The translations under genes and the position numbers were made by a program. Below, piece after piece: positions 32,667 to 34,786 of a stretch of DNA of 64,000 nucleotides. Origin of the DNA: Paracyclopina nana. Its lineage: Eukaryota; Arthropoda; Copepoda; Cyclopoida; Cyclopettidae. The stretch lies in the NCBI GenBank assembly GCA_019096065.1, contig JAGUCH010000008.1, positions 2,919,001 to 2,983,000 on the forward strand, read 5' to 3'. Position 1 is the first letter of the stretch, and each line of letters begins with the position of its first letter. The notes below the pieces were generated by a model that saw only the letters and a list, made by a program, of their open reading frames with translations, did not search any database and was not told where the DNA came from.

Positions 32667-34786
32667 TCAATGATGCTTTGGAGCACATTTTAGTGCACGA
32701 GCATGGAAATCGACATGGTCGCGCATAAAAGTGGATATAAAATAGTAGGAGTGATCATACAATGGCCTCATGTTGAGGGTCACCGGGTAATTGGCCTTTG
32801 CAGCAGCAGCAGTGAAGTTTTCAGGCTTCAATTGCTCCTTCAAAAAACCATCAGAGGTTCCTTGGTCAATGTAGATTGGAGCTTTTGGGCCAGAATAATT
32901 GGCAATCAGCTCAGTCGCATCATAGGCCTTGCCAGCCTCAACTGAACCTAAGTAGCCTTTGAAAGCCTTATCGCCCCAAGCGCATTCCACAGGGTTGCAA
33001 ATTGGAGCAAATGCAGACACGGACTGATACAGACCGGGGTTTTTCAGGTGGCTAACCAAAGCACCATGACCACCCATAGAGTGGCCACTGATAGCCTTCA
33101 GCTTGGTGTCCACAGGAAACAAAGCATCAATGTAAGCAGGCAGCTCTTTTGTCACATAGTCAAACATGTTGTAGTGCTTGGACCATTTCTTTTCAGTGGC
33201 ATTCAAGTAGAAACCAGCTCCAGAGCCAAAGTCGTAGGAGTCATCTTGGCCTTCAATAGTCACTCCCCTGGGACTCGTATCAGGGAATACAACAGCAAGT
33301 CCAACTCTGGCAGCCTCTTGTGCAAAATGTGCCTTAGTTCTTGCATTTTCATCAGTGCATGTCAGTCCAGATAGATAGTAGAGGACAGGAGGGTTGGGAT
33401 CTTGTCTCTCCTTGCGATCCGGGAGGAAAATTGAAAATGTCATGTCACATTGGCAAGAGTCACTCCAGTGAGTGAACTGTTTCATATAGCCACCCTCAAG
33501 CTTAATGTTGCCCTTCAGGGTTGGCAGCTCCACAGGCTTCATGTCATTTTTGGTTATGTTGACTACTGCTCTCAGGCAATTGCCACCATGCAAAGCTTCA
33601 ATTGCCCCATTCACTCCATCAATTCCATCAAAAGTATGGGTTACAAATGGGTCAAGCGTCATTTCTCCTCGCATAACCATTTGAACAAGTCTTGGTACCT
33701 CAGTGCGACTTTTCCAGCCTCCAAATGCGGTACCTTTCCACTGGCGACCAGTCACCAGCTGAAATGGTCTAGTTGAAATCTCCTTGCCGGCAGCAGCAAC
33801 TCCAATTATGCAAGATTCACCCCAGCCCCTGTGAGCTACCTCCAATGCTGTCCTCATGACATTCACATTTCCAGTACAATCAAAAGTGTAGTCATAGCCC
33901 CATTTATGTCTTCCAAGCAGGACCTCCCTACCATCATCATCACATTTGGAGGGGTTGACAAAGAAAGTAGCTCCCATTTCGCGAGCAGCATCATACTTGT
34001 GCTCATTGAGGTCAATGCCGACAATGTCACTAGCCCCAGCTTTCTTTGCAGCTTGGATGACCGACAATCCAAGAGCACCGAGGCCAAAAACAGCCACAGT
34101 TTTCAATGGCTCCATCTTGACAGTGTTGAAAACTGCCCCCCAACCAGTTGACACGCCACATCCAAGCAGGCACATCTTGTTCAAATCAGCCCCAGGGTGG
34201 ATTTTGGCAGCAGATATTTCAGCAATGACGGCATACTCTGCAAATGTTGAGCATCCCATGAAATGATAAATGGTCTTGCCATCCTTGGACAATCTGCTAG
34301 TGCCATCAGGCATGAAGCCTTGCCCTTGAGTAGCCCTGATCTTGGGGCACAGATTGGTTTTGCTACTCTGGCAGAAAATGCAATCATGCTCCTTGCATTC
34401 AGGTGTATAGCATGGAATCACAACATCTCCAATCTTGACAGACTTTACTCCCTCACCAACAGACTCAACTATAGCAGTGGCTTCATGTCCCAGGATGCTA
34501 AACAGAAAGGCTACAAGAATGTGTTTTGAATGAAACAAGATCCAAGTACATACCAAGGAAATAGGCCCTCAGGGTCATGCCCGTCCAAAGTGTAAATGTC
34601 AGTGTGGCAGAGAGCGTTGGCAATCACTTTCACTCGGACCTCGCCAGCCTTTGGAGGCTGAACTTGAATGTCGGTGATATCCAGTGGCTTTTTGGCCTCC
34701 CAAGCCACAGCAGCCTTGCAAGTGATGACTTTGCCGTTTGTGGCTTTCAGCCCATCAATCACATCCTGAGACACATTTCCCGCCAT
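32667..34786 (-). CDS. Fusion enzyme: S-(hydroxymethyl)glutathione dehydrogenase (ADH3) + S-formylglutathione hydrolase
   Basis: A 687-residue bifunctional chain. Exons are 34554-34786 and 32667-34497 (56-bp intron), and the fusion junction lies inside the single long second exon. Residues 1 to about 392 are class III alcohol dehydrogenase. Catalytic zinc ligands are C60, H82 and C191; structural-zinc cysteines are C112, C117, C120 and C128; the class III Arg is at 132; the NAD-binding GLGALG is at about 216-221. After a linker of about ten residues, residues 404-687 are S-formylglutathione hydrolase (esterase D family), with nucleophile S551 in GHSMGG, D627 in DQGTSDGF and H660 in YDHSYYF. 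Together they would oxidise the glutathione adduct of formaldehyde and then hydrolyse it to formate. No earlier ATG precedes 34786. The stop is followed two bases later by AATAAA. It is divergent from the gene at 35063. Confidence 0.95.

What the first reader, a model, noticed from the sequence alone, without database searches (positions are those of the whole stretch)
32667..34786. Natural fusion of both glutathione-dependent formaldehyde detoxification enzymes
A single exon of 1831 bp runs without a stop from ADH3 sequence into a complete S-formylglutathione hydrolase, joined by about ten residues. All catalytic residues I know for both families are present (C60/H82/C191 zinc ligands; S551, D627, H660). 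In animals these are normally separate genes (ADH5 and ESD). The fusion would couple oxidation and hydrolysis in one chain, keeping reactive S-formylglutathione local. I do not know of this fusion being described in arthropods, but cannot search.
Basis: partly seen in the sequence, partly recalled or inferred. Interest (0 to 1): 0.85.

Follow-up and report, generated by a model that had tools for sequence, protein, structure and literature searches.

The report
Ciliate-type fused formaldehyde enzyme in copepod
A copepod gene makes both formaldehyde-detoxifying enzymes as one protein, and both halves group with the fused enzyme of single-celled ciliates rather than with the separate animal genes, which suggests that copepods took it over from a microbe long ago.

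Summary
One intact two-exon gene on the minus strand (34786-32667) encodes a 687-residue protein: a complete class III alcohol dehydrogenase (ADH3) joined to a complete S-formylglutathione hydrolase (FGH). Both halves pass their NCBIfam cut-offs and keep their catalytic residues. It is not an assembly error: the same 92-Mb genome has a second fused copy about 420 kb away with five introns, and searches found no separate ADH3 or FGH there. Fused relatives occur in copepods (Eurytemora, Tigriopus, Lepeophtheirus) and in the ciliate Tetrahymena.

Trees of each half put the copepod proteins in one clade with the ciliate-type fusions (100/100 and 100/98); the few animal homologues sampled lie outside, and a copepod-plus-animal clade is rejected for both halves. 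Two small indels agree. The ADH3-FGH fusion itself is known from ciliates (Stover et al. 2005, cited in PMC3143110). What appears new is its presence in copepods, apparently gained by horizontal transfer from a ciliate-like protist before living copepod orders diverged, with both native genes missing at least here. The exact donor is unresolved, arthropod sampling is thin, and no activity or RNA was tested.

The parts
34554..34786 (-). exon 1 (aa 1-77 and part of codon 78) of the fused ADH3-FGH gene, ATG at 34786
   Evidence: Gene model; sequence
34498..34553 (-). 56-bp GT-AG intron; the second fused copy has an intron at the same place (its intron 2)
32667..34497 (-). exon 2, 1831 bp, open from ADH3 through FGH to the stop at 32669-32667
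33555..34732 (-). ADH3 domain, about aa 19-392 (interrupted by the intron); catalytic zinc C60, H82, C191; structural zinc C112, C117, C120, C128; R132 aligned with the arginine of the animal enzyme (roles recalled)
   Evidence: TIGR02818 over cut-off; PDB class III ADH matches; coordinates
33495..33554 (-). linker, about aa 393-412; the same stretch of the relative P0003 is modelled with pLDDT 82 and 88 (residues 391-400 and 401-410)
   Evidence: Domain ends; model; coordinates derived
32691..33494 (-). FGH domain, aa 413-680; catalytic S551, D627, H660
   Evidence: TIGR02821 over cut-off; PDB 3fcx match; coordinates
32662..32667 (-). AATAAA overlapping the last base of the stop; the only AATAAA or ATTAAA on this strand from 34786 to 32400, so none between the domains

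Best explanation
The gene encodes a bifunctional enzyme. Its N-terminal ADH3 domain oxidises S-hydroxymethylglutathione (formaldehyde plus glutathione) to S-formylglutathione with NAD+, and its C-terminal FGH domain hydrolyses that to formate and glutathione (inferred from the families). It is a member of the ciliate-type ADH3-FGH fusion. An ancestor of living copepods most likely acquired the already fused gene from a ciliate or ciliate-like protist. In this genome it carries spliceosomal introns, was duplicated, and stands alone for this pathway, the separate animal genes apparently having been lost. Shown here: fusion, intact residues, two copies, no separate copies found, and grouping of both halves with ciliate fusions away from the sampled animals. 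Inferred: enzymatic activity, direction of transfer, the ciliate as donor, and loss in other copepods.
For: Both halves over family cut-offs with intact catalytic residues. Second intact fused copy, 689 aa, 5 introns, 548 of 689 aligned columns identical, dN 0.15 and dS 2.6, dS saturated. No other ADH3 or FGH in six-frame searches with the fused protein, both families and animal proteins. Fused proteins in named copepods and Tetrahymena. ADH tree: 44-row clade of copepod and ciliate-type rows 100/100, 3 animal rows outside. FGH tree: 42-row clade 100/98, 3 animal rows outside. AU test rejects copepods plus animals: lnL 158.7 and 148.0 worse, p 4e-87 and 2e-60. Indels: between the first two structural-zinc cysteines 15 of 15 copepod rows, P0070 and 23 of 25 other fused rows have four residues (P0095 six, P0100 seven), while 3 of 3 animal, 3 of 3 plant and 6 of 6 bacterial rows have two (counted); the FGH loop after YLG has 8 residues in 15 of 15 copepod rows, P0070 and 26 of 26 other fused rows, and 9 in 3 of 3 animal and 6 of 6 bacterial rows. 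ADH identity to the window copy: other fusions 64-74%, animal chain 8gv3 60%, Drosophila (recalled) 58%. Animal gene neighbours and ordinary composition argue against a contaminant.
Against: Raw FGH identity does not separate the groups: other fusions 53-62%, the corals Acropora 60% and Actinia (an anemone) 58%, human-type 3fcx 55%; the FGH case rests on the tree and the indel. The relation of copepods to the two ciliate-type groups is unresolved in the joined tree (p 0.41 and 0.51), and a clade of all non-copepod fusions is not rejected by FGH (p 0.34), so nesting inside ciliates is not proven. Only two ciliates are named in the data (Tetrahymena; Strombidium, a partial sequence). The two indels also occur in reverse fusions and in some separate protist or unnamed rows, so they mark a wider type than ciliates. 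Arthropod outgroups are thin: one recalled Drosophila ADH, no arthropod ESD. Loss of the native genes was tested in this genome only. No RNA or activity data for this species.
Confidence: 0.8

Rival explanations
1. The donor was another, unsampled protist with the same fusion, or ciliates and copepods both received it from a third lineage.
For: The three-way branching of copepods, Strombidium-type and Tetrahymena-type rows is unresolved; most fused rows are unnamed metagenome proteins; separate protist-type ADH rows lie just outside the clade.
Against: The only named non-copepod members with this order that the searches listed are the ciliates Tetrahymena and Strombidium; the fusion was published as a ciliate trait.
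Confidence: 0.12
2. An ADH3-FGH fusion of the early eukaryotes, or a second old ADH3/FGH pair, was inherited vertically and lost in nearly all other animals.
For: Not formally excluded by the trees; protist-type ADH is spread over several lineages, oomycetes among them.
Against: Needs separate losses across animals, fungi and plants; no such relict was named among the best 120 of 5861 hits, although only about a quarter of database proteins carry names.
Confidence: 0.04
3. Transfer ran from copepods to ciliates.
For: Neither tree roots the fused clade firmly inside ciliates.
Against: The fused clade lies inside a protist-type ADH clade (53 rows, 100/100), and the fusion is in both Tetrahymena and Strombidium, lineages that I recall as older than copepods.
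Confidence: 0.02
4. Independent fusion of the native animal ADH5 and ESD in copepods, convergent with ciliates.
For: The pathway has been fused more than once: diatoms have the reverse order (P0115 and P0119 show that order).
Against: Copepod-plus-animal clades rejected for both halves; same order, same joint, shared indels.
Confidence: 0.01
5. Assembly artefact, contaminant or pseudogene.
For: None found.
Against: Two copies with different intron structure on a 6.8-Mb contig, animal gene neighbours, intact frames, relatives with the same architecture, two of them with transcriptome-assembly names.
Confidence: 0.01

Closest known systems
Ciliate FALDH-SFGH fusion, FSF1 of Tetrahymena (Stover et al. 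2005, cited in PMC3143110; P0089, a Tetrahymena fusion, here)
   Same: Order ADH3 then FGH, length (683 vs 687 aa), place of the joint, indels, catalytic residues; one clade in both trees
   Different: Copepod host; 69% and 60% identical in the two halves; in a spliced, duplicated animal gene. I read only passages of PMC3143110, not the 2005 paper
Fusion proteins of copepods in databases: Eurytemora carolleeae P0048, Tigriopus californicus P0064, Lepeophtheirus salmonis P0091
   Same: Same fused architecture, one copepod clade 100/100
   Different: Named by their sources as alcohol dehydrogenase class-3 or frmA only; the searches made listed no paper on the fusion
Diatom fusion, reverse order (P0115 and P0119 show this order; their organisms are not named)
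   Same: Same two enzymes in one chain
   Different: FGH precedes ADH3; a separate fusion event per PMC3143110
Animal ADH5 and ESD
   Same: Same two reactions (established knowledge)
   Different: Separate genes; 60% and 55% identical (8gv3, 3fcx); lack the shared indels; outside the clade
Bacterial adhC-fghA neighbours (Phaeobacter, Azospirillum, Vibrio)
   Same: Same two genes in the same order on one strand in the 3 of 3 records opened
   Different: Separate frames; outside the fused clade

Membership tests
Class III alcohol dehydrogenase / S-(hydroxymethyl)glutathione dehydrogenase | Match over the curated equivalog cut-off (TIGR02818) | tested here: met
   548.9 bits against 543.95; narrow margin
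Class III alcohol dehydrogenase / S-(hydroxymethyl)glutathione dehydrogenase | Catalytic and structural zinc ligands and the arginine of the glutathione site (roles recalled) | tested here: met
   C60, H82, C191, C112, C117, C120, C128 and R132 present; invariant columns; spacing C112-C117 is two residues longer than in the animal rows
S-formylglutathione hydrolase | Match over TIGR02821 cut-off and Ser-Asp-His triad | tested here: met
   356.9 bits against 281.7; S551, D627, H660 aligned with S, D, H of 3fcx and invariant
Both enzymes | Enzymatic activity | not testable with these tools
   No assay possible
Ciliate-type ADH3-FGH fusion | ADH3 N-terminal, FGH C-terminal, one frame | tested here: met
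Ciliate-type ADH3-FGH fusion | Common descent of both halves with the ciliate fusion | tested here: met
   Clades 100/100 (ADH, 3 separate ADH rows inside), 100/98 (FGH), 100/100 (joined):
Ciliate-type ADH3-FGH fusion | Position nested inside ciliates (needed to prove a ciliate donor) | tested here: inconclusive
   FGH trees favour sister to the Strombidium-type rows (97/96; SH-aLRT 98); joined tree and AU tests do not decide
Animal ADH5 and animal ESD orthologues | Common descent with animal sequences | tested here: not met
   AU p 4e-87 and 2e-60; only 3 animal rows in each tree

The most novel reading that the evidence does not exclude
Before the living copepod orders split, a copepod ancestor captured a ready-made fused formaldehyde enzyme from a planktonic ciliate, possibly an oligotrich such as Strombidium of the kind copepods feed on, and this one gene displaced both native, nearly universal animal genes (ADH5 and ESD) for good.
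Probability: 0.5. Interest if true: 0.75.

Novelty: new member of a known kind. Interest (0 to 1): 0.62.

Why it matters
If right, an animal lineage replaced a core housekeeping pathway (formaldehyde clearance and, through ADH3, S-nitrosoglutathione reduction; functions recalled) with a fused gene from a protist. Displacement of both native genes by one horizontally gained, already fused eukaryotic gene would be an unusual kind of transfer between eukaryotes. It is directly testable in copepod genomes, may give a shared derived character for copepods, and offers a natural ADH3-FGH chain for testing whether fusion speeds or protects the S-formylglutathione step.

Tried and rejected
Independent fusion of animal genes: rejected by trees, AU tests and indels. 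Bacterial origin of the fused gene: a scan of genome contigs with the fused alignment matched 16 stretches, 4 of them relatives; it used only two short ADH motifs, so it cannot exclude bacterial fusions. Bacterial rows fall outside the fused clade, although one, 8ilj, branches among separate eukaryotic FGH rows. I took rows from L021, L022 and L023 for the ADH tree (the last 400 residues of the open frame for L021 and L022); L024 gave none by my motif filter and was left out. L021's open frame has 684 codons, but the match covers only query residues 8-391 and I did not pursue it.

Donor within ciliates: joined tree, extended FGH tree and three AU tests did not settle it. P0070 was first put in my copepod group by identity; moved it away from copepods, to the Strombidium-type rows, and I regrouped it from then on, where I also added P0262 and P0265 to the copepod rows of the ADH test because the tree put them there. 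In one search I dropped rows of 66% identity or more to the FGH half (copepod-like) and rows with under 200 aligned residues; two rows added there as 'other' (P0118, P0171) fall with copepods, and P0163 with P0175 also branch beside copepods, unexplained. YN00 failed (math domain error) and dS is saturated. Codon composition of the gene is ordinary and says nothing about the donor. In one search my ADH pattern was wrong and matched no row; the ADH counts come, the FGH counts.

Paper searches on copepods, horizontal transfer and these enzymes listed, by title and start of abstract, no report of the fusion in copepods; three lists were cut (15 of 265, 20 of 32, 12 of 163), and bioRxiv and most subscription journals are not held.

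Full report
What is there. On the minus strand one gene runs from ATG 34786 to the stop at 32669-32667: exon 1 34786-34554, a 56-bp GT-AG intron, exon 2 34497-32667. It encodes 687 aa with no internal stop. Pfam finds ADH_N, ADH_zinc_N and Esterase. The NCBIfam equivalogs for S-(hydroxymethyl)glutathione dehydrogenase (548.9 bits, cut-off 543.95) and S-formylglutathione hydrolase (356.9, cut-off 281.7) both pass. The best PDB matches of the halves are class III alcohol dehydrogenases and 3fcx, an S-formylglutathione hydrolase. The linker is about 20 residues (aa 393-412). No AATAAA or ATTAAA lies between the domains; one overlaps the stop.

The genome. The window lies in an unnamed assembly of 92 Mb in 10 contigs. 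A second fused gene lies about 420 kb away on the same contig, which is 6.8 Mb long (C8:3372648 downwards). My model has six exons and 689 aa, with 548 of 689 aligned columns identical to the window copy. Its intron 2 is at the place of the window gene's only intron, and the joint lies inside one exon. dN between the copies is 0.15 against a saturated dS of 2.6 (NG86), as expected under constraint. Searches with both family models found nothing else of FGH and only matches of 28-30 bits for ADH on contigs 2 and 3. Searches with an animal ADH5 and an animal ESD chain found only the two fused loci. Only the best candidates are scored in such searches, but a true ADH5 or ESD should far exceed these scores.

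The organism. The nearest named proteins are from copepods: Eurytemora carolleeae, Tigriopus californicus (known from its TCALIF tag, recalled) and Lepeophtheirus salmonis. Identity to the window copy is 78, 77 and 72% in ADH and 70, 73 and 71% in FGH. In the joined tree 15 copepod-type rows, the genome's two included, form one clade (100/100). Neighbouring frames encode Arfaptin and ICA69 domains, inorganic pyrophosphatase, ADP-ribosylglycohydrolase and a class II tRNA synthetase; ICA69 is, as I recall, an animal gene. The G+C of third codon positions is within the range of the neighbours.

Relatives. The three protein searches listed 270 distinct proteins. By BLAST of the halves, 150 carry ADH then FGH, 2 the reverse order, 95 FGH only and 23 ADH only (fragments included); 95 of the 150 are full length by my cut of 350 and 255 aligned residues. 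Each search listed only its best 120 hits (of 5861), and few are named, so absence from other crustaceans cannot be claimed. Tetrahymena (P0089) has the same order. Two entries of the copepod clade carry transcriptome-assembly names (P0054, P0066), so joined transcripts appear to exist in relatives.

Origin of the halves. In the ADH tree (65 rows, 392 columns) 16 copepod-labelled rows, 25 other fused rows and 3 separate ADH rows form a 44-row clade (100/100), inside a protist-type clade of 53 rows (100/100) that holds oomycetes and the reverse fusions. The animal rows (8gv3, which I take for mammalian; the fish Scleropages; recalled Drosophila) sit together outside. In the FGH tree (69 rows, 281 columns) 16 copepod-labelled and 26 other fused rows form a clade (100/98); the animal rows 3fcx, Actinia and Acropora lie outside. 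Holding copepods with animals costs 158.7 and 148.0 log-likelihood units (AU p 4e-87 and 2e-60). Raw identity separates the groups in ADH (other fusions 64-74%, 8gv3 60%) but not in FGH (other fusions 53-62%, Acropora 60%, Actinia 58%, 3fcx 55%). Two indels agree with the trees. Between the first two structural-zinc cysteines 15 of 15 copepod rows, P0070 and 23 of 25 other fused rows have four residues (P0095 six, P0100 seven), where animals (3 of 3), plants (3 of 3) and bacteria (6 of 6) have two (counted). The FGH loop after YLG has 8 residues in 15 of 15 copepod rows, P0070 and 26 of 26 other fused rows, against 9 in animals (3 of 3) and bacteria (6 of 6). Both traits are also in the reverse fusions, in the 10 separate ADH rows, and in 4 of 16 other separate FGH rows, so they mark a wider protist type, not ciliates alone.

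Donor and direction. FGH alone favours copepods beside the Strombidium-type rows (97/96; SH-aLRT 98 in the quick tree). The joined tree leaves copepods, Strombidium-type and Tetrahymena-type rows as an open three-way fork. AU tests reject neither a clade of all non-copepod fusions (p 0.41 joined, 0.34 FGH) nor copepods with Strombidium-type rows (p 0.51). That the fused clade lies within protist-type ADH and that the fusion occurs in both Tetrahymena and Strombidium argue for protist to copepod. Presence in Eurytemora (Calanoida), Tigriopus (Harpacticoida) and the salmon louse implies acquisition before those lineages split; [quoted passage not shown] That paper describes another copepod chimera, with a part near bacterial chitin deacetylases; in its main text the words formaldehyde, alcohol dehydrogenase and ciliate do not occur.

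How it works. Inferred from the families: ADH3 makes S-formylglutathione from formaldehyde, glutathione and NAD+, and FGH releases formate and regenerates glutathione. The AlphaFold model of the relative P0003 (mean pLDDT 81.8, pTM 0.80, 25-sequence alignment) gives the linker stretch 391-410 a pLDDT of 82-88, so ordered rather than floppy, but parts of the ADH domain (about 113-138 and 312-338) are poorly modelled, and no distance between active sites was measured. Coupling between the domains is a hypothesis.

What is known. PMC3143110 (passages seen) describes Tetrahymena FSF1 with the formaldehyde dehydrogenase domain first and FGH second and says that diatoms have the reverse order, citing Stover et al. 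2005, which is not held. The 3 bacterial records that I opened keep the two genes next to each other in the same order. The searches listed no paper on the fusion in copepods.

Verdict. The fusion is real and, by all sequence signs examined, intact. As an architecture it is a new member of the known ciliate-type fusion.

Noticed in passing
L006 (G000:C8:3366500-3375500), gene at C8 3372648 downwards: Second fused copy with five introns; the window copy keeps only one of these. Rows P0007 and P0001/P0008 pair with the second and the window copy respectively, which suggests that the duplication predates these species.
   Followed up: partly
window 34786-35063: The fused gene and an apparently intronless ADP-ribosylglycohydrolase gene (35063-36070, +) lie head to head, about 276 bp apart, and may share a promoter.
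   Followed up: no
window 29056-31168: ICA1/ICA69-like gene (Arfaptin and ICA69 C-terminal domains), plus strand, a marker of an animal chromosome.
   Followed up: partly
P0115 and P0119 (database proteins): FGH then ADH3 in one chain, the reverse order described for diatoms; P0119 begins with an alanine-rich stretch that may be a targeting sequence.
   Followed up: partly
P0163 and P0175 (database proteins): Divergent FGH rows that branch beside the copepods in the extended FGH tree; fast copepods or a donor lineage, undecided.
   Followed up: no
L021 (Myxococcota MAG contig): The ADH3 match lies in an open frame of 684 codons although the match covers only the ADH part; not examined further.
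   Followed up: no
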